A DNA stretch of 31,965 nucleotides from a virus. The notes under the pieces were generated by a model. That model was not told the DNA's origin and ran no database searches. It saw only the letters and a list, made by a program, of their open reading frames with translations. Where the stretch lies: positions 1 to 31,965 of IMG/VR virus record IMGVR_UViG_3300023179_003731; one strand, 5' to 3'. Made by a program: the position numbers and the translations under genes. Of the stretch, positions 6,628-28,631 are shown piece by piece. Position 1 is the stretch's first letter, and the number at the start of each line of letters is the position of its first letter.

Positions 6628-6648
6628 AACACATATTAAGGGGTGTTT

Positions 6649-7386
6649 ATGTTCTACGTCTATGCACATTACAAAGCTGATGATCCTAATGGAGATCCTT
6701 TCTACATTGGAAAAGGAAAAGGACATCGAGAGTTATCACATCACAGAAATCCGTTTTGGAAGAATATTGTCAACAAGCACGGATTTGTGTCAACACGGCT
6801 CTATGAACATTTAACAGAACAAGAAGCGTGGGATATTGAAATCAAATTAATTAACCAATATGGAAAATTAACAGAGGGTACAGGATGTTTGTGTAACTTA
6901 TCTAATGGCGGTGAGGGCGCAAGTGGTGTTCGACATACCGACAAAACTAAAGAAAAATGGTCTAATGCCAAAAAAGGAAAAACCTGGGAAGAGATTTATG
7001 GACCAGAACAGGCTGCAGAAATACGTGCCAAAAGAAAATTAAAAAATCGTGTTCAGTCCACCGAAACTAGAAAAAAAATATCTGACGCTCATAAAGGTAA
7101 AATTATGCCGCCAGTGACTGATGAAACTAAAAGCAAATTATCGGCGGCCAGACTTGGCAAACCATCAAATTCAAAAGGAAAAAAATATTCTGAAGAAACT
7201 AGACAAAACTATAAGAAAGCTGCTATACTACGTGCTGCTAGGACAGATATTTACGAAAAAATTTCTGCCAAGTTAACTGGAATCAAACGTTCTGAAGAAA
7301 CTCGAAAAAAGATGTCTGACGCTGCAAAAGCAAGAGAATCTGCACGTCGAGATTCTAAAAAATTATTACTCACTAAGGAAAATTAA
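6649..7386 (+). CDS. GIY-YIG homing endonuclease with NUMOD3 repeats
   Basis: The ATG at 6649 is chosen because AAGGGG lies 6 bases upstream; the GTG at 6643 is less likely. Residues 1-90 form a GIY-YIG nuclease domain: MFYVYAHYKADD, FYIGKGKGHRE and the later E-IKLINQYG and CNLSNGG elements. The C-terminal half is a string of NUMOD3-type DNA-binding motifs (TKEKWSNAKKGKTW, TETRKKISDAHKGK, DETKSKLSAARLGK, SEETRKKMSDAAK). Free-standing GIY-YIG enzymes cut DNA near their own locus and spread by repair copying. The gene is more A/T-rich than its neighbours, consistent with horizontal arrival. Its target site is not known. Confidence 0.93.
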   Translation: MFYVYAHYKADDPNGDPFYIGKGKGHRELSHHRNPFWKNIVNKHGFVSTRLYEHLTEQEAWDIEIKLINQYGKLTEGTGCLCNLSNGGEGASGVRHTDKTKEKWSNAKKGKTWEEIYGPEQAAEIRAKRKLKNRVQSTETRKKISDAHKGKIMPPVTDETKSKLSAARLGKPSNSKGKKYSEETRQNYKKAAILRAARTDIYEKISAKLTGIKRSEETRKKMSDAAKARESARRDSKKLLLTKEN

Positions 7387-7647
7387 ATGACAACAAAAAC
7401 ATTCAACGGCGATCAGAAAATCAAGCTGATTCAGATTATTCAGGAAGGGATGCAAGTGACTCAAGAGATCGAAACTCTTACCGGTGGTCTCAATGACACC
7501 ATTAAGGCCATTGCTGAAGAACTGGAAATCAAACCAAGTGTGTTGAAAAAAGCCATCAAGTTGGCACACAAAGCTGAGTTTGGCCGAGCCAAGCAAGATC
7601 ACGAATTGCTGGAAACTATCTTGGAAACTGTGGGAAAAACTCTTTGA
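7387..7647 (+). CDS. dsbA: DsbA-like double-stranded DNA-binding protein
   Basis: The ATG directly follows the stop of the homing-endonuclease gene. The protein (86 aa) is all-helical and charged: IKLIQIIQEGMQVTQEIETL, LNDTIKAIAEELEIKPSVLKKA, then KAEFGRAKQDHELLETILET. The pattern fits the DsbA family of T4-like phages, in which DsbA binds late promoters and supports late transcription. The assignment is from recalled family features (length, LNDTIKAIAEEL-like core) and is not certain. A TTG start for the next gene overlaps its stop. Confidence 0.65.
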   Translation: MTTKTFNGDQKIKLIQIIQEGMQVTQEIETLTGGLNDTIKAIAEELEIKPSVLKKAIKLAHKAEFGRAKQDHELLETILETVGKTL

Positions 7648-7934
7648 TCCCTGCATTTAAAGATATTGTTAGATGGATACATGATGACTACACCAGTTCG
7701 CCTGTTCGTTTTATCGTAGAAATTGCGGCTTGGGCGATCAGTGTTGGGTGTTCAATCACTATGGCTCTCACTGTACCTACCCCTCCTCTCATTGTGCTAT
7801 ATCCTATTTGGATCTTTGGCTGTGTTATGTACGCTTGGGCTAGCTATACTAGGCGCAGCTTTGGGATGCTTGCCAATTATATATTGCTAGTATCGATTGA
7901 TTCGGTTGGACTATTAAGGATGATAATTAGTTGA
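7644..7934 (+). CDS. Small conserved phage membrane protein
   Basis: The start is a TTG at 7644 overlapping the upstream TGA; no ATG exists before the conserved-looking region. Ninety-six residues carry about three hydrophobic segments: FIVEIAAWAISVGCSITMAL, PLIVLYPIWIFGCVMYAWAS and ANYILLVSIDSVGLLRMII, after a charged N-terminus with WIHDDYTSSP. It should sit in the inner membrane. I recall similar small membrane proteins in T4-like cyanophages, of unknown role. Confidence 0.7.
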   Translation: MIPAFKDIVRWIHDDYTSSPVRFIVEIAAWAISVGCSITMALTVPTPPLIVLYPIWIFGCVMYAWASYTRRSFGMLANYILLVSIDSVGLLRMIIS

Positions 7935-7940
7935 CCTGTA

Positions 7941-7968
7941 TTGACGCTTTAAATCCATCGAGTAATAA
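7941..7968 (+). promoter_or_regulatory. Putative sigma70-like promoter for the polymerase gene
   Basis: TTGACG, 16-base spacer, TAATAA, just upstream of the polymerase ATG at 7983. AAAAAGGAAAA between -10 and ATG supplies the SD. The -10 is only moderately good, and another TTGACC lies at 7931. Confidence 0.4.
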
Positions 7969-7982
7969 AAAGGAAAATTTTC

Positions 7983-10139
7983 ATGTCGTACGTTGACGCA
8001 CTTTATGATCGAGCACACGATCGCATACATGTAGTTGAGAGGAAAGATGGTCGACGGGTATATCAAGAATACCCAGCCAACTATGTGCTGTACTACGACG
8101 ACCCACGAGGTAAGTTTCGTAGCATCTACGACACACCTGTGAGCAGATTTTCCTCACGCAATAACAAAGAATTTCGTAAGGAAGTGCGTATGCACTCCTC
8201 AAAGAAAATCTATGAGTCAGACATCAATCCTATTTTTCGTTGTTTAGAGGACAACTACAAAGGCCAGGATGGGCCTCAACTGCACACAGCGTTCTTTGAC
8301 ATTGAAGTAGATTTTGATCCAGAACGTGGATTCTCACCGGTCACAGATCCGTTTAATCCTGTAACAGCCATATCCATCTACATGGACTGGTTGGACCAAA
8401 TTGTCACATTAGCTGTACCTCCACGTCACATGAGCATGGAAACTGCAAGAGAAATTGCAGCAGAGTTCGACAACTGCTTTATGTTTGAAAAAGAAGCAGA
8501 TATGCTGAATACATTTCTGGATCTAATTGAAGATGCAGACATCCTTACAGGATGGAATTCAGAAGGCTACGACATTCCTTACACAGTGAATCGCATCACT
8601 CGAGTACTCAGCAAAGATGACACTAGACGCATGTGTTTGTGGAATCAGTATCCCAAACCACGTATGTTCGAACGCTTTGGTGCAGAGAATCAAACTTACG
8701 ATTTGGTAGGGCGAGTGCATATGGACTATATGCAATTGTACCGCAAATACACTTATGAAGAACGTCACAGCTATGCCTTGGATGCTATTGGCGAATACGA
8801 AGAAATTGGTCGCAAGACTGCATTTGAAGGCACACTGGATCAGTTGTACAATCAAAACTTCAAGATCTTTATTGATTACAATCGCCAGGACACAATGCTG
8901 ATTGGCAAGCTGGACAAGAAACTTAAATTCTTGAGCTTGGCCAATACTCTGGCACATGAAAATACCGTGTTACTGCAAACCACAATGGGTGCAGTGGCAG
9001 TTACTGAGCAAGCGATTATTATCGAAGCTCATGAACGTGGTATGGTAGTTCCTAACCGTAAAGAAAGATCCACAGATGAAGACACGCAAGCCGCAGGTGC
9101 CTATGTTGCTTATCCCAAAAAAGGAATCCACGACTGGATTGGTAGTATCGACATCAACTCGCTCTATCCCAGTGCTATTCGGGCCCTTAACATGGGCCCA
9201 GAAACCATTGTGGGCCAACTCCGGCCCACAATGACTGATCGGCTGATCCAAGACAAAATGGCCCAGGGAGATAGCTTTGCTGCTGCCTGGGAAGGATTGT
9301 TTGCCAGTCTTGAATACACAGCCGTGATGGAACAGCAACGTGGAACAGAGCTCACTGTGGACTGGCAAGACGGTACGGAAACTGTTCATTCAGCTGCTGA
9401 AATTTGGAAGTTGTTGTTTGATTCCAATCAACCTTGGATTCTCAGTGCCAATGGCACCATCTTCACTTACGAAAAAGAAGGTGTGATCCCAGGCTTGCTC
9501 AAACGCTGGTATGCTGAACGCAAAGAAATGCAAAAGAAAGCACGTGAGTTCGAAGGCAAGGACCCTGTGCAGTTTGAATACTGGGACAAACGTCAACTGG
9601 TCAAGAAGATCAACTTAAACAGTTTGTATGGCGCTATTTTGAATCCAGGTTGCAGATTTTTTGACAAACGTATCGGTCAATCAACCACATTGGTAGGACG
9701 CACCATTGCCAAACACATGGATGCATATGTGAATGAATGCATCACTGGCGAATATGACCACAGTGGCAAAAGCATAATCTATGGTGACAGTGTCACTAGT
9801 GACACATTGATCAAAACCAGCGATGGTGAAGTCACAATTGAAGAATTATTTAATCAATGCTTGGATCACAGCATAGTAGGAGATAAAGAATATGCTACTC
9901 AATCGTTTGCCAAAGTAGTTGGATTTAATGCATTAAATGACTGGCCGGTAATGAGTGAAATATCTTATGTCATGAGACACAAAACAAAGAAAAAAATATT
10001 TCAAATTGAGTTAGAAAATGGAAAATCGGTCAAGGTAACAGAAGATCATAGTCTAATGGTAGACCGAGATGGATTCCTATTAGAAGTTAAGCCCACGGAA
10101 ATAAAAGAAACAGATTTGATCATTTGCCTTAACACATAA
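7983..10139 (+). CDS. 43: DNA polymerase family B (T4 gp43-like), N-terminal part fused to split-intein N-half
   Basis: Residues 1-602 are the N-extein and 603-718 the N-intein. The 3'-5' exonuclease motifs are present: Exo I F-F-D106-I-E, Exo II NSEGYD and Exo III YNRQD303. Polymerase motif A is D390-I-N-S-L-Y-P-S and motif B is K-INLN546-S-L-Y-G. Motif C should read YGDTDS but is interrupted after YGD602, where SVTSDTLIKTSDGEVTIEEL begins an intein A block; the B block T-E-D-H follows. Translation stops at 10139 with no endonuclease or C-intein. The missing TDS and thumb are encoded at 11219-12079. Without trans-splicing this product lacks a catalytic Asp. N- plus C-extein total 888 residues, close to T4 gp43 (about 900). 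Confidence 0.95.
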   Translation: MSYVDALYDRAHDRIHVVERKDGRRVYQEYPANYVLYYDDPRGKFRSIYDTPVSRFSSRNNKEFRKEVRMHSSKKIYESDINPIFRCLEDNYKGQDGPQLHTAFFDIEVDFDPERGFSPVTDPFNPVTAISIYMDWLDQIVTLAVPPRHMSMETAREIAAEFDNCFMFEKEADMLNTFLDLIEDADILTGWNSEGYDIPYTVNRITRVLSKDDTRRMCLWNQYPKPRMFERFGAENQTYDLVGRVHMDYMQLYRKYTYEERHSYALDAIGEYEEIGRKTAFEGTLDQLYNQNFKIFIDYNRQDTMLIGKLDKKLKFLSLANTLAHENTVLLQTTMGAVAVTEQAIIIEAHERGMVVPNRKERSTDEDTQAAGAYVAYPKKGIHDWIGSIDINSLYPSAIRALNMGPETIVGQLRPTMTDRLIQDKMAQGDSFAAAWEGLFASLEYTAVMEQQRGTELTVDWQDGTETVHSAAEIWKLLFDSNQPWILSANGTIFTYEKEGVIPGLLKRWYAERKEMQKKAREFEGKDPVQFEYWDKRQLVKKINLNSLYGAILNPGCRFFDKRIGQSTTLVGRTIAKHMDAYVNECITGEYDHSGKSIIYGDSVTSDTLIKTSDGEVTIEELFNQCLDHSIVGDKEYATQSFAKVVGFNALNDWPVMSEISYVMRHKTKKKIFQIELENGKSVKVTEDHSLMVDRDGFLLEVKPTEIKETDLIICLNT
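9789..10139 (+). other. Split intein, N-terminal half (116 residues)
   Basis: Ser is the first intein residue, directly after the YGD of polymerase motif C. Block A is SVTSDTLIK; block B contains T-E-D-H in GKSVKVTEDHSLMVDRDG. It ends in a stop codon in place of a linker or endonuclease domain. The insertion point corresponds to the motif-C site (pol-c) used by inteins of archaeal B-family polymerases. Base composition is more A/T-rich than the preceding extein. Confidence 0.93.
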
Positions 10140-10142
10140 ATA
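10135..10142 (+). promoter_or_regulatory. T4-type late promoter (CATAAATA) overlapping the N-half stop codon
   Basis: CATAAATA matches TATAAATA at 7 of 8 positions and contains the TAA stop of the polymerase N-half. It lies 25 bases before the ATG of the endonuclease gene, with AGGAG at 10153-10157 between. Confidence 0.5.
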
Positions 10143-10166
10143 CTATGGTAATAGGAGTATCAGTGT

Positions 10167-11117
10167 ATGGTAAAATGCTTAGAGTGTGGATTTGAATCTA
10201 CTAGATTGCAATGGACTCATTTTAAATTTAATTGCACAGGAAAATTTAAAAACGGTAAAGAATATATGCTTGCATATCCAGGTGCCAAAGTAGTTGACCT
10301 ATATCTGGCAAAATCAACTGCGATTACCTTGGAAAATTTGACCAAAAAGTACGGTGCCATTGATGGCAACCAACGATGGCAAGAATACCGATCAAAACAA
10401 GCATACTCAAATTCATACGAATATAAAAAAGAAAAATTTGGATGGAGCCAAGAGCAATTTGAAGAATACAATTCATCAAGATCGCAAACCCTTGAAAAAA
10501 TGATACTTCGTCATGGAGAAACAGAAGGCATTGCTAAATGGGAATTGTATTGTGCTAGGCAAGCATACACAAATACCAAAAATTATTTTATTGAAAAATA
10601 CGGATTAGATAAAGGAACTGAAAAATATATTGCCATAAACAAGAAAAAATCAGTTAATAGTCCTGCCTTACTTTCTGAAAAATTAAATATTTCGCTTGAT
10701 CAAGCAACTGAAATAATTTTATCTCGACAAAAACAATTTTTTACCAGTAATCTTGAACAAGAATTTATATCTGCAATTGAACAACAAATTGGTACGCTAG
10801 ACAATACTACAAAAAATAAACCATTTGGAAAGTGGTCTTCTTTATTAAACACCTACGTCATCTATGATGTCAGACATAAAAAATGTATTATTGAATTTAA
10901 CGGAGATTATTGGCATGCAAACCCTAACATTTACAAAGATGATACAATCATCCGTGGCAAAAAAGCTGTTGACATTAGGCATAAAGATATGTTAAAATTA
11001 AAAACAGTTCAAGATTTAGGGTACAAAACCCTTGTGGTATGGGAATCTGATTTTAAAAATCATAAAGATTCAACAATAAAACAGGTATGTGAATGGATAC
11101 TCAGAGAACAAAAGTAA
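10167..11117 (+). CDS. Free-standing Vsr-like (EDxHD-type) homing endonuclease within the split polymerase locus
   Basis: The ATG at 10167 has AGGAG nine bases upstream. Residues 4-23 (C-L-E-C, then H and C) form a zinc-finger-like unit followed by EYMLAYPGAKVV, as in MucR-type fingers. Residues about 55-160 hold repeated DNA-binding-like units (KYGAIDGNQRWQEYRSKQAY and later YG-x5-G-x4-Y variants). The C-terminal nuclease resembles Vsr: IIEFNGDYWHANP, DIRHKDMLKLKTVQDLGYKT, LVVWESDF. This matches the EDxHD family (I-Bth0305I type) first described in phage fractured genes with split inteins (Dassa et al. 2009). It likely cuts intein-free polymerase alleles near motif C. The gene is A/T-rich, and its 3' end overlaps the C-half gene by 25 bases. 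Confidence 0.88.
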   Translation: MVKCLECGFESTRLQWTHFKFNCTGKFKNGKEYMLAYPGAKVVDLYLAKSTAITLENLTKKYGAIDGNQRWQEYRSKQAYSNSYEYKKEKFGWSQEQFEEYNSSRSQTLEKMILRHGETEGIAKWELYCARQAYTNTKNYFIEKYGLDKGTEKYIAINKKKSVNSPALLSEKLNISLDQATEIILSRQKQFFTSNLEQEFISAIEQQIGTLDNTTKNKPFGKWSSLLNTYVIYDVRHKKCIIEFNGDYWHANPNIYKDDTIIRGKKAVDIRHKDMLKLKTVQDLGYKTLVVWESDFKNHKDSTIKQVCEWILREQK

Positions 11118-11218
11118 AATCGGTACAATGTCTTGGAGAAATAGAGGATTATGTATATGATATTAGCATCGACAATCAAGATCCATTTTTCTTTGCAAAT
11201 GACATACTGGTACATAAT
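11093..11218 (+). other. Split intein, C-terminal half (42 residues)
   Basis: Block F is GEIEDYVYDISIDNQD and block G is FFFANDILVHN, ending in the His-Asn pair that cyclises. The first C-extein residue is Thr, a valid nucleophile. With the 116-residue N-half it makes a mini-intein of 158 residues. Confidence 0.92.
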
Positions 11219-12079
11219 ACAGACTCCTGCTATTTCTCAGCATGGCCCATGGTTCAAGCCGAAGTCGAAGATGGTAGAATGGAGTGGTCTGCAGAGACCT
11301 GTATTGCATTGTATAACTCCATAGCCGATCAGGTAAATGATTCGTTTCCGGGATTCATGGAACAGGCATTTCATTGTCCACGAGACATGGGATCTGTGAT
11401 CCGTGGTGGTCGAGAAATTGTAGCACGTACTGGATTGTTCATTACCAAAAAACGTTATGCTGTGTTGTACATCGACAAAGAGAACAAACGTGTGGATGTA
11501 AACGGCCGGCCAGGCAAGGTCAAGGCCATGGGCTTGGATTTGAAACGCAGCGATACACCTGTGGTTATTCAGGAGTTCCTTAGCGATCTTCTTAATAAGG
11601 TACTAACAGGAGCACAGCGAGAAGAAATTGTAGAATGTGTGAGAGAATTCAAATACAAATTTACCGACCGACCGGGCTGGGAAAAAGGATCACCCAAACG
11701 TGTGAATAACCTGACCAAGTATGGTAATTTAGAAGAGAAGAATGGCAAGTACAGCATGCCCGGCCATGTGAGAGCCGCACTGAACTGGAATACTCTACGA
11801 CGCATGAATTCAGACAATTACTCCATGCAGATTGTGGATGGCATGAAAACCATTGTATGCAAGCTCAAAAGTAATGCATTAGGATGGACCAGTATTGGAT
11901 ACCCCACTGACGAACATCATTTGCCCACATGGTTCAAAGAACTGCCGTTTGATGATGCCAGCATGGAAGCCACTGTGGTAGATCAAAAGATTGACAATCT
12001 ATTAGGGGTGTTGGGCTGGGACCTGCAATCTAGTACCAACACAGCAAATACATTTACTAGTTTATTTTCTTTTGAATGA
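11093..12079 (+). CDS. 43: DNA polymerase family B C-terminal part fused to split-intein C-half
   Basis: The ATG at 11093 is the first possible start; an in-frame TGA lies directly before it. Residues 1-42 are the C-intein and residues 43-328 the C-extein, which begins TDSCYFS and so restores motif C as YGD/TDS. KKRYAVLYID is the conserved K-x-Y thumb motif of family B. The C-terminus TSLFSFE resembles the clamp-binding tail of T4 gp43. The reading frame differs from that of the N-half, so read-through cannot join the parts. SD is weak, and the first 25 bases lie inside the endonuclease gene. The next gene overlaps by ATGA. Confidence 0.93.
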   Translation: MDTQRTKVKSVQCLGEIEDYVYDISIDNQDPFFFANDILVHNTDSCYFSAWPMVQAEVEDGRMEWSAETCIALYNSIADQVNDSFPGFMEQAFHCPRDMGSVIRGGREIVARTGLFITKKRYAVLYIDKENKRVDVNGRPGKVKAMGLDLKRSDTPVVIQEFLSDLLNKVLTGAQREEIVECVREFKYKFTDRPGWEKGSPKRVNNLTKYGNLEEKNGKYSMPGHVRAALNWNTLRRMNSDNYSMQIVDGMKTIVCKLKSNALGWTSIGYPTDEHHLPTWFKELPFDDASMEATVVDQKIDNLLGVLGWDLQSSTNTANTFTSLFSFE

Positions 12080-13266
12080 AACTCAGCAGCATAGTTGGAT
12101 ACCTCAATCAGTTGAACACACTTGATTTGACATCAGCTGTGAAACTTCGTGCGCAACTGGACGAAATCAGTTATGTGATACAAAATAGTCCAGTACAATT
12201 TCCCGAGCTTGCTGATGAATTACTTGCAACACAAGATCAAGTCAAATTATATCTACAACAACATAATCAACGTCTCGACAACATACGTCAAGCTGTTCAG
12301 CAGTTGATCCGGCAGCATGAACCTGCATACTTTGACCGTAGCACCCGGCTGTATGAGTCCATACAATATCAAACATCTCAGCAGATTCTGCAAAGAATCA
12401 GACCCAGAGATTCAATTGCCAAAAATCACTTGCATGACAGATTGCGAACTGGCAGTGATTGCCGCTGGCCAGGCCTGGTGATTGGCCCTGCACTCAGTGC
12501 TTGGGTAGAAGATTTGGTAGCCTTGGATCCCATGTATTTTGTAGATGTTCGTCGAGACCTGATTGATCCTGCTGTGGTTGTGTATCCCCCCGAATATCAA
12601 CGCAGAATACGCTGTTATGTGATTGATGATCGTGATGGGCCTATATTTCAACAACTGCCACAAAATCAATTTGGATTGGTGTATGGGTTTGACTATTTTA
12701 ATTTTCGCCCATTGGAGATTGTAAAGCAGTATATCCAGGAAGTGTTTGACCTATTGCGCCCCGGCGGCAAAATGTTTTTCAATTTCAATGACTGTGATCA
12801 GTCAGGTGGTGTAAGTTTGGTCGAACAAAACTATTGCTGTTATACCCCAACAACACTGATACATGAACATGTAAAGCAAGTGGGATTTGAAATTGTACAC
12901 CGGGGTTCCATTGACAATACCACAAGCTGGCTGGAGTTGCAAAAACCCGGGCAACTGACCAGCATTCGCGGCGGCCAGACCTTGGCCAAAGTTGTGAAAA
13001 AGCCCGGCCCAGTGCTGTTTGATTCCACAGTGACAGAACAGATTGTGCCAGACACTGTTGACATTCCTATCAAAAAACTCTATAATAGTTTAGACTTAGA
13101 CCAATTGATCGGCCTAGCTGGAATATTAGCTGTGGATATTACAAATGCCACTACCAAGGGCTTGTTTAATATCAAAAAAGTTCGAAGAACCATAGAGGCA
13201 TTTCTTGCACAGCAAAACCTGTCAGAAGACCAATTGAGAAAATTATTTAAAAGGACCCAAAAATGA
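12076..13266 (+). CDS. Class I SAM-methyltransferase-like protein with helical N-terminal domain
   Basis: Residues 1-110 are helical and Gln-rich (LDEISYVIQNS, QVKLYLQQHNQRLDNIRQAVQQL). The central part has a Rossmann-like methyltransferase layout, with PMYFVDVRRDLID as a possible acidic strand-2 loop, FGLVYGFDYFNFRP as motif IV region and FDLLRPGGKMFFNFNDCDQ as a clear post-IV motif. A basic C-terminal helix ends the chain. The usual G-x-G-x-G motif I is not obvious, so SAM binding is unproven. It sits between the polymerase C-half and the clamp with ATGA overlaps on both sides, suggesting a co-expressed DNA- or replication-linked role. Substrate unknown. Confidence 0.65.
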   Translation: MKLSSIVGYLNQLNTLDLTSAVKLRAQLDEISYVIQNSPVQFPELADELLATQDQVKLYLQQHNQRLDNIRQAVQQLIRQHEPAYFDRSTRLYESIQYQTSQQILQRIRPRDSIAKNHLHDRLRTGSDCRWPGLVIGPALSAWVEDLVALDPMYFVDVRRDLIDPAVVVYPPEYQRRIRCYVIDDRDGPIFQQLPQNQFGLVYGFDYFNFRPLEIVKQYIQEVFDLLRPGGKMFFNFNDCDQSGGVSLVEQNYCCYTPTTLIHEHVKQVGFEIVHRGSIDNTTSWLELQKPGQLTSIRGGQTLAKVVKKPGPVLFDSTVTEQIVPDTVDIPIKKLYNSLDLDQLIGLAGILAVDITNATTKGLFNIKKVRRTIEAFLAQQNLSEDQLRKLFKRTQK

Positions 13267-19439: not shown

Positions 19440-20231
19440 ATGCGAGAATTTAAACCCGATCCAGTCATACATTCACAAACCCAAGAATTTGTCCCAGTAG
19501 AAGGACAAACATTCTACATCAAAAAAGATAATGCAGCACAAGGCCGATATCTAAGCACCGTAATTCGCGACCGCATGCGAGCTGATGGCAAAAGATTCTG
19601 GGCAGGCGATAACATCAGTGATTATCTAGTTGGTCCTGACAAAGAAGATTTGATCGATGAAACCACAGCAGCATTCGAAAGAGTTCTAGATGCATTACTA
19701 ATTGATCGCGAAACAGATCCTAACTCAAAAGGTACAGCACGTCGACTGGCCAAAATGTACTTCAATGAAATTATGGCAGGAAGATATGAACCAGCGCCGG
19801 ACGCAACAGCTTTTCCAAATGACTCAACAGACCGCTACGAAGGTATGCTTGTGGTACGTAGTGAGCTTCGAAGTATGTGTTCTCATCATCACCAGCCTGT
19901 ATCTGGGGTTGCCTACATCGGTATCATTGCCGCTAATAAACTTATTGGTCTCTCAAAATACACACGGATCGCTCAGTGGTGTGCTCGTCGAGGTACACTT
20001 CAAGAAGAACTAGCCAATGACATTGCAAGAGAAATCATGGAGGCCACTGACTCCAGTGATGTAGCGGTTTATATACAAGCTGAACATGGTTGCTGCACCA
20101 ATCGAGGTATCATGGCACACTCAAGCCTTACACAGACCACTGTGCTTAAAGGTGCATTTAAAGACGATCCTGGCACAAAGAAAGAGTTCTTTGACAACAT
20201 CAAACTACAACAGGAATTTGCGCCGCGATGA
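19440..20231 (+). CDS. folE: GTP cyclohydrolase I
   Basis: AAGGAATAACATG gives a good SD. In the C-terminal two-thirds the diagnostic motifs are present: C-S-H-H-H in MCSHHHQPVSGVAYIGI (zinc Cys and catalytic His), ANKLIGLSKYTRIAQWCARR, LQEELANDIAREI and EHGCCTNRGIM (second zinc Cys). It converts GTP to 7,8-dihydroneopterin triphosphate, the first step toward 7-deazaguanines and folates. A non-conserved N-terminal extension of about 60 residues precedes the core. It lies in the same strand run as dpdA, queD and queE. The HIT gene overlaps its stop by 4 bases. Confidence 0.93.
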   Translation: MREFKPDPVIHSQTQEFVPVEGQTFYIKKDNAAQGRYLSTVIRDRMRADGKRFWAGDNISDYLVGPDKEDLIDETTAAFERVLDALLIDRETDPNSKGTARRLAKMYFNEIMAGRYEPAPDATAFPNDSTDRYEGMLVVRSELRSMCSHHHQPVSGVAYIGIIAANKLIGLSKYTRIAQWCARRGTLQEELANDIAREIMEATDSSDVAVYIQAEHGCCTNRGIMAHSSLTQTTVLKGAFKDDPGTKKEFFDNIKLQQEFAPR

Positions 20232-20632
20232 TACATTACCAAACGCTAGATGATGCACAAGCCGCCGGTGTAGCACCCTGGGATCTAAAAGTACCAGAGT
20301 TAAGCGATTTTCATGTCACTGTGTTTCGAGATCGCTATCCTGTGACCCGCGGCCATTTGTTGTTTGTACCTTACTACAATACCGATGCTGTGATCAACGA
20401 CTGTATGGAATCGGCCATGCGGTATGGTCGTCGTATGGTAGAACAAGGGCATTGTGAAGGATTCAACATTGGTATCAACATAGGATCTGCTGCTGGGCAA
20501 ACAGTGATGTATCCACATGTGCATTTTATTCCGCGACGATCAGGCGATACTGCCAATCCGGTTGGCGGTGTGCGTGGAGTTATATTTGGCCAGGCTGACT
20601 ATAAAGCCACCGGCTATCAACTGCCGTTATAA
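20228..20632 (+). CDS. HIT-family nucleotide hydrolase/transferase
   Basis: 134 residues starting MIHYQTLDDAQAAG. FHVTVFRDRYPVTRGHLLFVP is the N-terminal HIT strand pair; the GINIGSAAGQTVMYPHVHFIPR segment contains the HIT motif (here H-V-H-F in place of H-x-H-x-H) after the classical NxG-x-AGQTV stretch. HIT enzymes act on nucleotide phosphates such as dinucleoside polyphosphates or nucleotide-sugar adducts. The first two His are kept; the third position is Phe-Ile, so hydrolase activity needs testing. ATGA overlap with folE. A late promoter overlaps the stop codon. Confidence 0.85.
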   Translation: MIHYQTLDDAQAAGVAPWDLKVPELSDFHVTVFRDRYPVTRGHLLFVPYYNTDAVINDCMESAMRYGRRMVEQGHCEGFNIGINIGSAAGQTVMYPHVHFIPRRSGDTANPVGGVRGVIFGQADYKATGYQLPL

Positions 20633-20635
20633 ATA
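20628..20635 (+). promoter_or_regulatory. Exact T4-type late promoter TATAAATA
   Basis: All 8 bases match the T4 late consensus. It includes the TAA stop of the HIT gene and lies 84 bases before the queD ATG at 20719, so queD and following genes could have their own late transcript. Confidence 0.6.
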
Positions 20636-20683
20636 TTCACAGCGGCCTTGGACGTCGACCCGCTTTATAAACTCCGCCGCCTA

Positions 20684-20692
20684 TGCTATAAT
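20684..20692 (+). promoter_or_regulatory. Extended -10 promoter before queD
   Basis: TGCTATAAT is a perfect extended -10 element, with TTTATA at 20664-20669 as a weak -35 (17-base spacing). Transcription would begin about 20 bases before the ATG, with AGGAG in between. Confidence 0.55.
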
Positions 20693-20718
20693 CAACATAG
20701 TTCTATAGGAGAAAACAC

Positions 20719-21201
20719 ATGGGATTCACTGAAAAGAAATTCAAATCAACAAAGACCTATAACCAAATAGGTCCGGTCGCGTATCGCCAATGGCGTGCCG
20801 ATAGTCATTGCAATTTAATACATGGATACGCACTATCATTTCATTTTGAATTTGAAACAGATGATTTGGATGCTAGAAATTGGGTGTGTGATTTTGGTGG
20901 ATTGAAACCACTCAAAGGGCTACTAGAAGATTGGTTTGATCATACTCTATTAGTAGCACAAGATGATCCCATGCGTGAACATTTGCTAAACTTAGGCAAG
21001 CTAAAACTAGCAAAGATCACCGAAGTAGAAAAGACTGGTTGTGAAGGCATTGCTGACTTTTTATATGAATATATTAATACAATCTTTTTGCCCAACTACG
21101 GTGAGAAAGACCGAGTATGGTGTTGCAAAGTAGAAGTGCGAGAAACTGATGCTAACATGGCCATGCGTGTCGGGCATAGAGAAGACAACGAATTTCAATA
21201 A
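20719..21201 (+). CDS. queD: 6-carboxytetrahydropterin synthase-like protein
   Basis: SD TAGGAG precedes the ATG. SHCNLIHGYALSFHFEFE corresponds to the QueD region with catalytic Cys (S-H-C) and zinc site. The usual HGH is HGY here, so one canonical zinc His is replaced, a variant I recall in other phage QueD proteins. NWVCDFGGLKPLKGLLEDWFDHTLLV is the DF-x-x-LK and DH-T-L-L segment. VEKTGCEGIADFLYEYI and CKVEVRETDANMA supply the SxE(N)-like and catalytic Glu elements. It converts dihydroneopterin triphosphate to 6-carboxytetrahydropterin, between folE and queE products. 160 residues, a little longer than E. coli QueD (about 120). Confidence 0.87.
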   Translation: MGFTEKKFKSTKTYNQIGPVAYRQWRADSHCNLIHGYALSFHFEFETDDLDARNWVCDFGGLKPLKGLLEDWFDHTLLVAQDDPMREHLLNLGKLKLAKITEVEKTGCEGIADFLYEYINTIFLPNYGEKDRVWCCKVEVRETDANMAMRVGHREDNEFQ

Positions 21202-22028
21202 TGACCAACAAAATTGATATCAGTATTTTGTTGCCCACTCGCGGTCGGGCACAAGCATTGATGAGTAGCATACAAAGTCTCTGCACTCTTGCTGAGGACT
21301 TTGCTTCAATTGAAGTATTGTTTGGTGTGGACCATGATGACGTGGTAGGTATGGAAAACATGCTACACAACGTGTGCCCTTGGATTGAAGAACACAAAAT
21401 TAATCATAAGATTTTGGTATTTGAACCACAAGGGTACAACAACTTGCATCGTTATGTAAATGGGCTTGCTGAACACAGTCAAGGTTCTTGGCTGTTCTTT
21501 TGGAACGACGATGCTGTGATGAAAACTCCTGCATGGGATGCACGTATACGTGAACACACAGGCAAGTTCAAATTGCTGAGTGTGTATACACATAACGATC
21601 ATCCTTACAGTATCTTTCCCATCTTGCCAAGAAAGTGGTTTGAAATTCTAGGGCACATTAGTCAACACAGCTCAAATGATGCATATGTGAGTCAGATTGC
21701 ATACTATTTGGATATCTTTGAACGCATCAATGTGCATTGCGATCATAATCGATATGATATCACTGGTGCAAACAACGATGCAACGTTTCAACAACGTCGT
21801 ATTATGGAAGGTGATCCCAGTCAACCTGGTGATTTTAATCACCCCGACATGGTCAAATTGCGTACCACGGATGCTGCCAAACTGGCCACATGGATGCAGG
21901 ATCAAGGACTTGATCTGTCTTTTTTTATCAATGCATGGCAAGGAACACAAGACCCCTGGGTCAAGATGCGGGCCAACGATGTCAATAATCAAGTTGATGC
22001 TGTGTCTAGTCGAGTAAATACCTTATGA
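21201..22028 (+). CDS. GT-A fold (family 2-like) glycosyltransferase, copy 1
   Basis: The first base of the ATG is the last base of the queD stop (TAATG). IDISILLPTRGRAQALMSSI is the GT2 N-terminal strand. SIEVLFGVDHDDVVG is the nucleotide-sugar Asp region, and WLFFWNDDAVMKTPAWD carries the D-D metal-binding (DxD-like) site. FPILPRKWFEILGHIS and the NDATFQQRRIMEGDPSQPGDFNHPD segment are shared with the paralogue at 22197. 275 residues, no membrane segment, so probably cytoplasmic. The acceptor is unknown: modified DNA, virion protein or lipid-linked sugar are possible. Confidence 0.85.
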   Translation: MTNKIDISILLPTRGRAQALMSSIQSLCTLAEDFASIEVLFGVDHDDVVGMENMLHNVCPWIEEHKINHKILVFEPQGYNNLHRYVNGLAEHSQGSWLFFWNDDAVMKTPAWDARIREHTGKFKLLSVYTHNDHPYSIFPILPRKWFEILGHISQHSSNDAYVSQIAYYLDIFERINVHCDHNRYDITGANNDATFQQRRIMEGDPSQPGDFNHPDMVKLRTTDAAKLATWMQDQGLDLSFFINAWQGTQDPWVKMRANDVNNQVDAVSSRVNTL

Positions 22029-22123
22029 CAAAACAGAAAATCAGCTGTATCCAACCCAAATTCCAACAAGGTCTCAAAGAATTCAATCCTTGCTGTTTGA
22101 CACCGCAGAAGACTCAAACATGA
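22025..22123 (+). CDS. Micro-ORF (32 aa) with C-x-P ... NPCC pattern
   Basis: ATG overlaps the previous stop as ATGA and its own stop overlaps the next micro-ORF as ATGA. The peptide includes CIQPKFQQGLKEFNPCCL, whose Cys spacing resembles the entry to radical-SAM/SPASM proteins (C-x-P then NPCC). It may be a remnant of such a gene or a real coupled peptide. The perfect stop-start chain suggests translation. Confidence 0.4.
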   Translation: MTKQKISCIQPKFQQGLKEFNPCCLTPQKTQT

Positions 22124-22200
22124 GTGAGGATCACTTTTTGGAGAACATATACCTTGGTAGAAAATGCAACTTTGGAAAAATCACAATTACACGAACATGA
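22120..22200 (+). CDS. Micro-ORF (26 aa) in the ATGA chain
   Basis: Begins MSEDHFLENIYLGRKCNFGK and ends in a stop that overlaps the next glycosyltransferase start (ATGA at 22197-22200). No family recognised. The overlapping codons on both sides are the only support that it is translated. Confidence 0.35.
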   Translation: MSEDHFLENIYLGRKCNFGKITITRT

Positions 22201-23039
22201 ATCTTGCTACACAAAATCCCAACATTGATATCAGTGTGTTATTGCCAGTACGTGCAAGACCAGTTCCAATGGAACAATGCTTGCGCACATTGATTGATAC
22301 TGCCACTAGCCCAGAACGCATCGAGGTATTGATAGCATTTGATGATGATGACACTGATACCATTAAATATTTTATAGATGTGATTGCTCCATATCTTGAT
22401 TTAAAGGGTGTGACCTATAGTGCTATGCAATTTAAACGCTTGGGCTATCTTCGTCTCAACGAATATCTCAATGAGTTGGCCAATCACAGCACAGGCGCCT
22501 GGATTTTCTTCTTGAACGACGATGCAGTGATGACCACCACAGCATGGGATGATGTTATACGTGAACACAATGATCGTTTTGCATTGTTGCGAGCCGAAAC
22601 CAATCACGGACATCCATATGCTATTTTTCCCATCTTGCCACGCAAATGGGTGGAGATTACTGGACATATCTCACCACATCAAATCAATGATGCATGGACC
22701 AGTCAGATTGGGTGGATGTTGGATATTGTGATCACTGTACCTATCATGATCGAACATGAACGGTTCGATCTCACTGGCAAAAATGGTGACGATGTTTTTA
22801 TGAATCGTCCTATGCTGGAAGGCAATCCCTCTCATCCTAGAGATTTTAATCATCATACCTGGCGAGTACGGCGTACACAAGATGCTGTAAAACTTGCAAA
22901 TTACATAGCATCATTGGGATATGATGTCGAACATTTTAAATTGGGTATGGAAAACAAAATTGACATCTGGGCAAAGATGTTGAAATTAGACACCAAGGGT
23001 CTAATGAAATCATGGAGCAGCACTGAACTTGACAACTGA
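22197..23039 (+). CDS. GT-A fold (family 2-like) glycosyltransferase, copy 2
   Basis: The ATG at 22197 fits the ATGA chain; an in-frame ATG at 22164 would add 11 residues. IDISVLLPVRARPVPMEQCL, RIEVLIAFDDDDTDTIKYF, WIFFLNDDAVMTTTAWDDVI (metal-binding D-D), FPILPRKWVEITGHIS and the NRPMLEGNPSHPRDFNHHT region align along the whole length with the protein at 21201, marking a duplication followed by divergence. Shared N-D-D-A-V and ILPRKW elements suggest the same donor or fold, while differing surface stretches suggest different acceptors. The methyltransferase gene overlaps its 3' end by 11 bases. Confidence 0.85.
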   Translation: MNLATQNPNIDISVLLPVRARPVPMEQCLRTLIDTATSPERIEVLIAFDDDDTDTIKYFIDVIAPYLDLKGVTYSAMQFKRLGYLRLNEYLNELANHSTGAWIFFLNDDAVMTTTAWDDVIREHNDRFALLRAETNHGHPYAIFPILPRKWVEITGHISPHQINDAWTSQIGWMLDIVITVPIMIEHERFDLTGKNGDDVFMNRPMLEGNPSHPRDFNHHTWRVRRTQDAVKLANYIASLGYDVEHFKLGMENKIDIWAKMLKLDTKGLMKSWSSTELDN

Positions 23040-23808
23040 ACTTATAGACCGAATCAAACATTACTGGAATGCACAACCTTGTAATGTCAGGCATAGCCTT
23101 AGCGAACCAGGCACAGAACAATATTGGAATGAAGTCACTGAACGTAGATTCTTTGTAGAACCTCATCTACGTGATTTTGCTAGTTTTCATTTGTGGCGTG
23201 GCAAACGTGTGTTAGAAATAGGATCAGGTATTGGATCCGATGCTGTGGAGTTTGCACGTCACGGTGCTGAATATGTGGGAATTGATCTTTCAGCAGAATC
23301 TGTGGCCATGAGTCAACAAAGATTCAAACTGTTTGGCCTGTCAGGTGAGTTCCATGTGATGGATGGTGCAAACAGCGCAGCAGTGGCTGCACTGGGCAAA
23401 TTTGATCTAGTGTACAGTTGCGGGGTACTACATCATTATCCAGATATGACCACATGTTTGAACAATATCCATGCAGCATTGGTGCCCGATGGAGAATTCC
23501 GCATGTTGGTATATGCAAAGAACTCGTGGAAATATGCCATGATCCAAAAAGGTCTGGACCAATTTGAAGCACAATCGGGTTGTCCGTATGCCAAGGCCTA
23601 TAGCAAGGAAGAAATTTATGATCTGCTGGAACACAAGTTTCGAGTACTGAGAATTAGACAAGATCATTGTTTCATGTATAATGTACCCAAGTACCGCGCA
23701 GGTGAGTACGAACTAGAGCCTTGGTTTGCTGTGATGTCCGAAGACATGCGAGCAGCAGTGAAAGAATACCTGGGTTGGCATTTGTTAATTAAAGCACAAA
23801 AAATATGA
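23029..23808 (+). CDS. Class I SAM-dependent methyltransferase
   Basis: TTG start at 23029, 11 bases inside the glycosyltransferase gene, with GGAG upstream; the next in-frame ATG would remove motif I, so TTG is likely. GKRVLEIGSGIGSDAVEFA is a textbook motif I (ExGxGxG). YVGIDLS is the acidic strand-2 motif. FDLVYSCGVLHHYPDM is motif IV, and LVPDGEFRMLVYAKNSW the later strands. It resembles Methyltransf_11/25 types acting on small molecules or glycans. Location among sugar-transfer genes suggests methylation of a sugar or nucleobase. Substrate unknown. Confidence 0.85.
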   Translation: MTTELIDRIKHYWNAQPCNVRHSLSEPGTEQYWNEVTERRFFVEPHLRDFASFHLWRGKRVLEIGSGIGSDAVEFARHGAEYVGIDLSAESVAMSQQRFKLFGLSGEFHVMDGANSAAVAALGKFDLVYSCGVLHHYPDMTTCLNNIHAALVPDGEFRMLVYAKNSWKYAMIQKGLDQFEAQSGCPYAKAYSKEEIYDLLEHKFRVLRIRQDHCFMYNVPKYRAGEYELEPWFAVMSEDMRAAVKEYLGWHLLIKAQKI

Positions 23809-23839
23809 GTAAACTTAAAATCTCCAGGGTGTAATATTT

Positions 23840-23867
23840 TTAACTAAAACTCCTCACTCTGTATAAA
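23840..23867 (+). promoter_or_regulatory. Putative sigma70-like promoter upstream of queE
   Basis: TTAACT, 16-base spacer, TATAAA, in the 171-base gap before queE. The gap otherwise holds only a doubtful 34-codon ORF (23898-24002). No clear preQ1 riboswitch fold was found. Confidence 0.4.
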
Positions 23868-23979
23868 ACACATCACACTACAGTTAGAAGTTGGTGTATG
23901 CCAGATAGTAAATGGAAAAAAGAAGGATTTACTTGTGAAAAAATCTTTATATCATTAAATCAATTAAAGGAATATGTAA

Positions 23980-24846
23980 ATGTCAAAAATAAAAATTGCT
24001 GAGTTATTTTACTCGTTGCAAGGAGAAGGCCGATATATGGGGGTTCCCAGTGTATTCTTACGCACATTTGGCTGCAATTTCCGCTGTGCAGGATTTGGCA
24101 TGGCACCTGGTGAACTCAGCAAAGAAGCAGATGATATTGCTGTTATGAATGCCATGCATCCATTCAAGAAGTACGAAGAACTACCATTAGTTAGCACAGG
24201 ATGCGATAGTTTCGCTAGTTGGCATCCTGACTTTAAACATCTTAGTCCCATGCTTACCACTGATGCTATTGTAGATCGTATTATGGAAATTCTTCCACAT
24301 GGTGAGTGGCAAGACGAACATCTTGTTATCACGGGCGGTGAACCACTGCTGGGTTGGCAACGTGCTTATCCGGACTTGCTAGAGCATCCTAAGATGGTAG
24401 GACTCAAAGAAATTACCTTTGAAACAAACGGTACTCAAAAGCTAACAGAAGAGTTTAAAGAATTTCTACACAACTGGAGAAAGCCGGAACCTTATTGCGT
24501 TCCAACACGAGAAATTACATTTAGCGTAAGTGCTAAACTGCCATGCTCGGGTGAGAAGTGGTCGGAAGCTATCTGTCCAGAGATTGTATCTGAATATCAA
24601 CAAGTTGGTACAGTATATTTGAAATTTGTCATTGCCACAGAACAAGATTTTGCCGATGCACAATGTGCCACTGAACAATTCCGTAACGCAGGATTTCGAG
24701 GTCATGTTTATCTAATGCCAGTTGGGGGAGTTGAAAGTGTATATTCATTGAATAACAAGAATGTAGCATTACTTGCAATGAAACACGGGTTACGATACAG
24801 TGACCGATTGCAACTACCTTTATTTTCCAACGCCTGGGGAACTTGA
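23980..24846 (+). CDS. queE: 7-carboxy-7-deazaguanine synthase (radical SAM)
   Basis: AAAGGAATATGTAAATG supplies an SD. LFYSLQGEGRYMGVPSVFLR is the QueE N-terminal signature. FGC32NFRC36AGFGM holds the first two cluster Cys; the third is C75 in VSTGCDSFASWHP, separated by an insert of about 38 residues. This split arrangement differs from the CX3CX2C or CX14CX2C forms of bacterial QueE, and I recall it from other phage QueE. LVITGGEPLLGWQ is the SAM-binding GGE motif. It rearranges 6-carboxytetrahydropterin into CDG, the precursor of preQ0. QueC, which makes preQ0, is not in this window. Length 288, longer than E. coli QueE (223). Confidence 0.93.
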   Translation: MSKIKIAELFYSLQGEGRYMGVPSVFLRTFGCNFRCAGFGMAPGELSKEADDIAVMNAMHPFKKYEELPLVSTGCDSFASWHPDFKHLSPMLTTDAIVDRIMEILPHGEWQDEHLVITGGEPLLGWQRAYPDLLEHPKMVGLKEITFETNGTQKLTEEFKEFLHNWRKPEPYCVPTREITFSVSAKLPCSGEKWSEAICPEIVSEYQQVGTVYLKFVIATEQDFADAQCATEQFRNAGFRGHVYLMPVGGVESVYSLNNKNVALLAMKHGLRYSDRLQLPLFSNAWGT

Positions 24847-27968: not shown

Positions 27969-28631
27969 CTATCGAATGGTATATCTATTTTTGTATATAC
28001 TGTTCTTATTATATCTTTTTGCCCAAAATAAAGACTTTGGATCTATTCCGAGCGGTTTAAGAATCTCTACAGAGTTATGACAATCAAATGGTATTTCGAC
28101 ATTATCTATTATATCTATAAGAGTATAAGTTTTAACTGGTAAGATTCTAGATTCGTTTTTCTTCTTGACGCTTGCCGAAATTTTGTTTCTAATTTCCTGC
28201 GGAGTTTCTCGGTTATAGTTCCAATGACCTGCGCCAGATCTATTTTTAGACATTTCTAATTTTTGTTCGTCGGACCAAATTTTCTTTCCGACCTTTCCTT
28301 TTGATATATTGTTCTTAACTTCCTTTGAAGGAATCCACCCCGAGTTTCCATCTCCGCCGTCAGTTTTATTTCGAAGTATGCCCGTACTATTGTCAATTCT
28401 GCCGTACCATCGGATCATCCTTCGTTCGATTGCCAGGGACCCGACATCAGTTAAATTGTGTTCAAGAATGACAATATTAGAAAGATCTGATTTCGGAAAA
28501 ACAGTACGATCTGATTTTGACCATGCTCGTAACCCAGATCCTTTTCCTATGTAATACGGTGATCCGTCTTCTCGAAGATATGCATATACATAAAACCCAG
28601 ACGGCGGGTTATTTTTTGAGTAAATAATCAT
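27969..28631 (-). CDS. GIY-YIG homing endonuclease on the opposite strand
   Basis: The only - strand gene. Residues 12-90 hold the GIY-YIG domain: [28 protein letters not shown], then [20 protein letters not shown] with the catalytic Glu region and TDGGDG. The C-terminal part has NUMOD3-like motifs ([50 protein letters not shown]) and a further domain ending [19 protein letters not shown] lies about 10 bases before its ATG. It is A/T-rich and looks like an insertion between the MazG-like gene and the fragment at 28708. Its own late-type promoter lies upstream. Confidence 0.93.

What the first reader, a model, noticed from the sequence alone, without database searches (positions are those of the whole stretch)
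7983..12079. DNA polymerase broken at catalytic motif C by a split intein, with a free-standing EDxHD endonuclease gene between the halves
Seen: the polymerase reads to YGD602, then an intein A/B block and a stop; 1.4 kb later a 42-residue C-intein ending VHN leads straight into TDS and the thumb. The two halves are in different frames. A separate Vsr-like nuclease gene lies between and overlaps the C-half by 25 bases. Known: fractured phage genes with split inteins and this endonuclease family were described by Dassa et al. 2009 for other genes, and contiguous inteins occur at the same motif in archaeal polymerases. Inference: an essential replicative polymerase depends on trans-splicing, since each half alone lacks an intact active site.
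Basis: partly seen in the sequence, partly recalled or inferred. Interest (0 to 1): 0.85.

Follow-up and report, generated by a model that had tools for sequence, protein, structure and literature searches.

The report
Phage DNA polymerase split by mobile intein
A phage's replicative DNA polymerase gene is cut in two inside its catalytic motif by a selfish element, a split protein-splicing intein with a homing-endonuclease gene between its halves; this kind of arrangement is already known, but close relatives show the element jumping between polymerases, losing its endonuclease many times, and several times healing back into one continuous gene.

Summary
ORF 7983-10139 encodes a family B polymerase up to YGD602 plus a 116-residue N-intein. 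ORF 10167-11117 is a Vsr-like nuclease. ORF 11093-12079 is a 42-residue C-intein (…ILVHN) leading into TDS and the thumb. Removing 9789-11218 leaves an 888-residue polymerase, and intein-free relatives read straight through.

The kind is known. Aeromonas Aes123-type, Campylobacter CP21, Pseudomonas MIJ3/PA5oct and Tenacibaculum PTm1 phages carry split-intein PolB, and YGD|TDS is the classical pol-c site. The locus is a new member of a known kind.

Comparison of about 160 loci adds two things. (1) The element moves: 95-100% identical elements sit in polymerases 70-80% identical, with sharp boundaries. (2) It decays in two ways. The endonuclease gene was deleted at least 10 times with the intein left split. 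At least 4 times the halves fused back into a contiguous mini-intein that still carries out-of-frame endonuclease codons, most clearly L202 against its 98%-identical split sister L118.

Trans-splicing and cleavage are inferred, not shown. The support is conserved splice residues, dN/dS mostly about 0.02-0.2 even between endonuclease-less alleles, no second PolB in ten larger relatives, and a solved homologue (PDB 9hth).

The parts
7983..9788 (+). N-extein of the family B DNA polymerase (602 aa, exonuclease + palm to YGD of motif C)
   Evidence: PHROG 262 DNA polymerase E 6.6e-139
9789..10139 (+). N-intein, 116 aa plus stop: Ser1, R63-H64 (NX motif), T84-x-D86-H87-S88 (block B)
   Evidence: (PDB 9hth E 1e-21)
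10135..10142 (+). CATAAATA, one mismatch to the T4-type late promoter TATAAATA, overlapping the N-half stop codon
   Evidence: consensus match only, function inferred
10144..10167 (+). Leader hairpin (arms 10144-10153 and 10158-10167) with the Shine-Dalgarno GGAG in the loop, ending at the endonuclease start codon; degenerate in the window, strong in relatives
10167..11117 (+). Free-standing Vsr-like (EDxHD-type) homing endonuclease, 316 aa; nuclease fold at residues 190-316, helical region before it
11093..11218 (+). C-intein, 42 aa (MDTQRT...VYDISI...ILVHN); start codon lies inside the endonuclease gene
11093..11117 (+). 25-base overlap of endonuclease 3' end (WILREQK*) and C-half start (MDTQRT)
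11219..12079 (+). C-extein (286 aa + stop): TDS of motif C and thumb
   Evidence: PHROG 262 E 7.8e-44
9789..11218 (+). Whole mobile element, 1430 bp, inserted between codons YGD and TDS (pol-c site)

Best explanation
The locus is a mobile 'fractured gene' element at the pol-c site of a phage family B DNA polymerase. Two half-polymerases, each fused to half of a Ser1/Thr+1 split intein, are translated separately. The intein halves associate and splice in trans (Ser1 ester, transfer to Thr+1, Asn cyclisation), joining YGD to TDS and so rebuilding catalytic motif C in an 888-residue enzyme. The Vsr-like endonuclease between the halves is a selfish homing enzyme: it cuts intein-free YGDTDS alleles of co-infecting phages, and repair copies the whole 1430-bp element. 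It is probably expressed late, from a TATAAATA-like promoter and a leader hairpin that holds its ribosome-binding site. Once fixed, the endonuclease is dispensable and is repeatedly deleted. Out-of-frame deletions leave an endonuclease-free split intein; in-frame ones fuse the halves into a contiguous mini-intein. Shown by sequence: anatomy, exact insertion, lateral movement of the element, repeated endonuclease loss, independent fusions. Inferred: trans-splicing, DNA cleavage, late expression.
For: Intein homology and splice residues: TIGR01445 E 5e-13, PF14890 E 7.3e-10, solved polymerase intein 9hth E 1e-21; Ser1, NX His64 and block B T84/H87 invariant in a diverse set (motif NX is the Ser1-intein signature, PMC10189870). 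Empty sites contiguous at YGDTDS. Mobility: window element 97-99% identical to that in L152 (extein 87%) and 95-96% identical to that in L174 (extein about 71%); L134/L135 elements 100% identical with exteins about 78%. Selection on both halves: dN/dS mostly 0.02-0.2 wherever dS is measurable and not tiny, including pairs that both lack the endonuclease (L185/L190: IntN 0.12, IntC 0.07). Endonuclease fold: Vsr Z 11.9, I-Bth0305I Z 11.3; D234, E243, H250 invariant in 65/65. No second PolB in ten relatives. Decay series: at least 10 forced endonuclease losses, 4 forced contiguous origins, AU test against one origin p 1e-52. Fossil endonuclease codons in contiguous inteins: L202 KVKKWILKEQL* out of frame, identical to L118; L184 KVTK*ML; L227 WIQNT.
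Against: No biochemical test of splicing or cleavage for any member of this clade. The closest tested relatives are Aes123 and LCGC14/CP21 type PolB inteins, and native Aes123 splices only about 30% (PMC11923092). The split gene 43 of Aeromonas phage 25 works as two non-covalent chains (PMC2988022), so splicing is not the only way to live with a broken polymerase. The window's leader hairpin is weak, and its promoter match is one of 17 with up to one mismatch on that strand of the window.
Confidence: 0.88

Rival explanations
1. The two halves assemble without splicing, as in Aeromonas phage 25 gp43A/gp43B; the intein halves are inactive relics.
For: Non-covalent split gp43 and split NrdA exist in T4-like phages (PMC2988022). 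Several relatives of the window carry further breaks of the same polymerase with free-standing endonucleases and no intein match in the tests run (L136, L109, L151).
Against: The break lies inside catalytic motif C, where tails of 116 and 42 residues would block an active site. Intein residues are under strong purifying selection even where the endonuclease is gone. Fused alleles keep a complete intein rather than losing it.
Confidence: 0.07
2. Assembly or sequencing error that broke one contiguous intein-containing gene.
For: The window comes from a metagenomic contig, and contiguous inteins at the same site do exist (L184, L201, L202, SCTP-2).
Against: A complete conserved nuclease gene lies between the halves; more than 70 independent contigs and several isolate genomes (Aes123, KP13-7) have the same layout; the 95-99% identical elements in L152 and L174 cover the same region.
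Confidence: 0.01
3. Contiguous inteins are ancestral at each node and the endonuclease gene broke each of them independently; that is, no split intein has healed.
For: For site-B member L247 the direction is ambiguous: its linker is homologous to the leader of separate C-halves and could be either source or product. Splitting of contiguous inteins is the textbook direction (PMC7765530).
Against: Contiguous site-A rows are single tips inside split clades, with four origins forced and one origin rejected. They keep out-of-frame codons of the conserved endonuclease C-terminus (W310 region): exact in L202, decayed in L184 and L227. The endonuclease tree broadly follows the intein tree, so the split state is old.
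Confidence: 0.12

Closest known systems
Aeromonas phage Aes123-type PolB1 split intein with VSR-like endonuclease (JN377899 and relatives)
   Same: PolB broken in motif C by a split Ser1 intein, VSR/EDxHD-like nuclease between the halves (38% identical over 82%), overlap of nuclease end and C-half start
   Different: Inserted two codons later (DTD|S, Ser+1); N-intein only 37% identical; polymerase additionally broken into 43A/43B
Pseudomonas phages MIJ3 / PA5oct PolB split intein (PMC6892783)
   Same: About 50% identical polymerase, same split-intein family (44%), endonuclease gene between the halves
   Different: Insertion at YGDTD|S; the nuclease is an HNH-type enzyme
Klebsiella phage KP13-7 PolB
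   Same: Same YGD|TDS site, split intein, 36% identical Vsr-like nuclease
   Different: Intein only 32% identical; annotated as hypothetical proteins
Nanoarchaeum equitans split PolB and Mimivirus/archaeal pol-c inteins (PMC549080)
   Same: Exactly the same insertion point YGD|TDS
   Different: N. equitans: no endonuclease gene between the halves (own knowledge, unlinked genes); Mimivirus/archaea: contiguous inteins
Salicola phage SCTP-2 PolB contiguous mini-intein
   Same: Related intein at YGD|TDS in a related polymerase
   Different: One ORF, no endonuclease
Fractured genes with EDxHD endonucleases (Dassa et al. 2009, not held; recalled)
   Same: Conserved enzyme gene broken by a split intein with a free-standing Vsr-like endonuclease inserted
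   Different: Whether PolB at pol-c was among their loci could not be checked here

Membership tests
Fractured gene with split intein | Host gene broken into two ORFs, each carrying one intein half with splice-site residues | tested here: met
Fractured gene with split intein | Free-standing endonuclease ORF between the halves | tested here: met
Fractured gene with split intein | Intein-free contiguous homologues exist | tested here: met
   L014-L093
Fractured gene with split intein | Trans-splicing restores the host protein | not testable with these tools
   needs co-expression; supported only by selection and homology to 9hth
pol-c intein allele | Insertion between YGD and TDS of PolB motif C | tested here: met
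   site definition PMC549080
Cysteine-independent (Ser1) inteins, Aes123 type | Ser at 1, Ser/Thr at +1, NX-motif [RK]H and block B His | tested here: met
   Ser1, Thr+1, R63-H64, H87 (PMC10189870). Non-catalytic Cys are present
Aes123 PolB1 allele | Insertion after DTD with Ser+1 | tested here: not met
   window is YGD|T
EDxHD / Vsr-like homing endonucleases | Vsr-like PD-(D/E)XK fold of the catalytic domain | tested here: met
   model pLDDT 91; Vsr 1cw0 Z 11.9 and I-Bth0305I 3r3p Z 11.3. Sequence profile against Vsr only E 0.06
EDxHD / Vsr-like homing endonucleases | Conserved E, D, H and final D catalytic residues | tested here: inconclusive
   E197 62/65, D234 65/65, E243 65/65, H250 65/65; the last D of the motif was not assigned
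EDxHD / Vsr-like homing endonucleases | Site-specific cleavage of the intein-free allele | not testable with these tools
   lateral movement of the element fits

The most novel reading that the evidence does not exclude
Splitting of an intein is reversible in nature. At the pol-c site of these phage polymerases, split inteins that carry a Vsr-like endonuclease gene lose the nuclease by deletion (short-homology breakpoints where examined) and at least four times independently fuse back into contiguous mini-inteins, which keep out-of-frame fossil codons of the nuclease. Others stay split without it. This completes a cycle empty - fractured - relict split - contiguous, with sister alleles about 98% identical in different states.
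Probability: 0.8. Interest if true: 0.65.

Novelty: new member of a known kind. Interest (0 to 1): 0.5.

Why it matters
The locus itself adds to a short list of phage replicative polymerases that must be joined from two chains. The comparison matters more. Textbook accounts treat natural split inteins as end products of a broken contiguous intein. Here near-identical alleles are found intact-with-nuclease, nuclease-deleted-but-split, and re-fused, so the forces that make, keep and undo split inteins can be tested on natural sequences. The clade also holds dozens of untested Ser1/Thr+1 split inteins, with natural fused counterparts, for protein engineering.

Tried and rejected
Group I intron or other structured RNA at the break: no Rfam match up to E 1 in 7600-12300. 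Extra copies of PolB in the same record or relatives: only the two or three pieces of one gene. Idea that the window's insertion site is unusual: rejected, it is the classical pol-c site; the YGDTD|S site of MIJ3, Aes123 and about 30 contigs is the other one. Idea that further breaks in L109, L136 and L151 are more split inteins: the inserts there are free-standing endonuclease genes and no intein match was seen next to them, though those flanks were not scanned with intein profiles. dN/dS between most extein pairs could not be used because synonymous sites are saturated. A profile search of the endonuclease against PDB sequences gave only E 0.06 to Vsr, so the fold comparison was used instead. 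A request with wrong coordinates failed. Dassa et al. 2009 could not be read.

Full report
OBSERVATION. The N-half (7983-10139) is a family B polymerase to YGD602 followed by a 116-residue N-intein. The C-half (11093-12079) starts with a 42-residue C-intein ending ILVHN and continues TDSCYF. The nuclease gene (10167-11117) lies between and overlaps the C-half by 25 bases. Profile matches: DNA_pol_B 1.6e-25, Intein_splicing 7.3e-10 and 1.4e-4; intein_Nterm 5e-13, intein_Cterm 17.6 bits over a cut-off of 15.6. Excising 9789-11218 leaves an open 889-codon frame including the stop. The record is a 31,965-base virus contig with no other PolB match.

PRIOR ART. The best solved relative of the intein is 9hth (E 1e-21), a polymerase intein that I take to be the Aes123 PolB1 crystal structure. 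PMC11923092 describes the Aes123 intein as a cysteine-less split intein of T4-like Aeromonas phage polymerases that splices in trans. GenBank already labels Aes508, Aes516, AS-gz and PTm1 PolB 'intein-containing split DNA polymerase precursor' and Aes123 as N-intein / putative VSR endonuclease / C-intein. PMC12707363 adds CP21, LCGC14 and GOM PolB split inteins; PMC6892783 describes MIJ3. In all, 48 of 50,697 phage records match the window N-intein. YGD|TDS is the pol-c site of Mimivirus, archaea and the split N. equitans PolB. The finding is therefore a new member of a known kind.

ANATOMY AND CHEMISTRY. Ser1, Thr+1, C-terminal Asn, penultimate His, block B TxDHS (T84, D86, H87, S88) and the NX-motif RH (63-64) are all present, and H64, T84, D86, H87 and S88 are invariant in a diverse set. 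This fits oxyester (cysteine-independent) splicing (PMC10189870). The second Asp of YGDTDS, a metal ligand of family B polymerases (established knowledge), is on the C-half, so the N-half alone cannot be active.

ENDONUCLEASE. An AlphaFold2 model built on 36 family members has pLDDT 91. Residues 190-316 match Vsr (1cw0, Z 11.9, 2.7 A, 112 residues) and the EDxHD homing enzyme I-Bth0305I (3r3p, Z 11.3). Foldseek E-values are weak (0.017 and 0.18), but these enzymes rank at the top. D234, E243 and H250 are invariant in 65 of 65. The residues before position 190 are helical and hold repeated conserved W/Y/Q positions, suggestive of DNA-binding repeats (inference).

EXPRESSION SIGNALS. In the leader between the N-half stop and the nuclease start, 31 related leaders support a 10-bp hairpin with the Shine-Dalgarno GGAG in its loop and the start codon at its foot: 81% of cells pair, against at most 56% when slid, and six pairs change on both sides. 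Shuffle controls are moderate (5-19 of 500 reach the observed value for four of five measures, 52 for the fifth). A TATAAATA-like late-promoter sequence overlaps the stop codon in most site-A elements. T4 homing endonucleases are controlled in a similar way (PMC2988022). In the window itself the hairpin is degenerate and the promoter has one mismatch, so this part is tentative.

MOBILITY. Intein-free polymerases are abundant; L014 is 96/91% identical in protein and contiguous. Elements are far more alike than their hosts: window and L174 95-96% against about 71%, L134/L135 100% against about 78%, L095/L180 99% against about 75%, with sharp change at the insertion point. The endonuclease tree broadly follows the intein tree, so the element usually travels as a unit. 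MIJ3 and L254/L255 carry an HNH-type enzyme instead. The same intein family occupies two positions two codons apart, YGD|TDS and YGDTD|S; the intein tree needs four changes, so the site has shifted a few times.

DECAY AND HEALING. Two scans with N-intein sequences gave loci chosen without regard to the nuclease. Many are split but have only 35-370 bases between the halves, usually with recognisable nuclease remnants; the deletions examined spare the C-half start codon, which lies inside the nuclease gene. On a careful tree of 62 site-A inteins with three site-B outgroup rows, this relict state needs 12 changes, 10 of them forced by well supported branches. The four contiguous site-A inteins need four origins, all forced, and one common origin is rejected (AU p 1e-52). 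L202 and L118 are sisters (100/96) whose inteins are 97-99% identical in DNA; L202 lacks 952 bp between short AAAA repeats, and its linker is the nuclease C-terminus KVKKWILKEQL* read in another frame. L184 (KVTK*ML) and L227 (WIQNT) keep decayed versions; L201 keeps only a short stretch. L261/L263 are a second contiguous/split pair at the other site. For L247 the direction is ambiguous.

SELECTION. dN/dS of both intein halves is mostly 0.02-0.2 where dS is measurable and not tiny, including between alleles that both lost the nuclease (L185/L190 0.12 and 0.07; L243/L252 0.20 and 0.08). Some of that divergence may predate the losses. Ten larger relatives (68-328 kb records, completeness unknown) hold only the pieces of one PolB. 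Together these argue that the halves are functional and needed.

LIMITS. No splicing or cleavage experiment exists for this clade. The window is a fragment with unknown host. The loci are top-ranked hits, so state frequencies are not population frequencies. The claim that split inteins healing into contiguous ones is unreported rests on searches of an open-access library only and on memory.

Noticed in passing
L136 (984-7934), L109, L151, L123, L134, L167, L170: Relatives in which the same polymerase is broken again, near residue 112 and/or 512-548, by free-standing endonuclease genes with no intein match seen; in L136 the polymerase appears to be encoded in four pieces, only the last joint carrying a split intein.
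   Followed up: partly
L004, L142, L158, L160-L167, L240-L265 versus window: The same intein family occupies two sites two codons apart (YGD|TDS with Thr+1, YGDTD|S with Ser+1); the intein tree needs about four switches.
   Followed up: partly
window 6643-7386: A GIY-YIG-like homing endonuclease gene (PHROG 314, E 3.6e-24) sits about 600 bp upstream of the polymerase gene.
   Followed up: no
window 27969-28631, minus strand: A second gene sharing PHROG 15526 with the upstream GIY-YIG-like gene, on the opposite strand to its neighbours.
   Followed up: no
window 19440-24846: GTP cyclohydrolase, QueD-like and QueE-like genes with two glycosyltransferase-like genes between: a possible 7-deazaguanine pathway for DNA or tRNA modification.
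   Followed up: no
L100, L230, L227, SCTP-2 (L006): C-inteins ending in Lys-Asn instead of His-Asn (penultimate His replaced).
   Followed up: no
L171/L172 leader: A 13-bp hairpin pairs the endonuclease Shine-Dalgarno with an upstream arm and holds a TATAAATA-like promoter in its loop, the arrangement known for T4 I-TevI.
   Followed up: no
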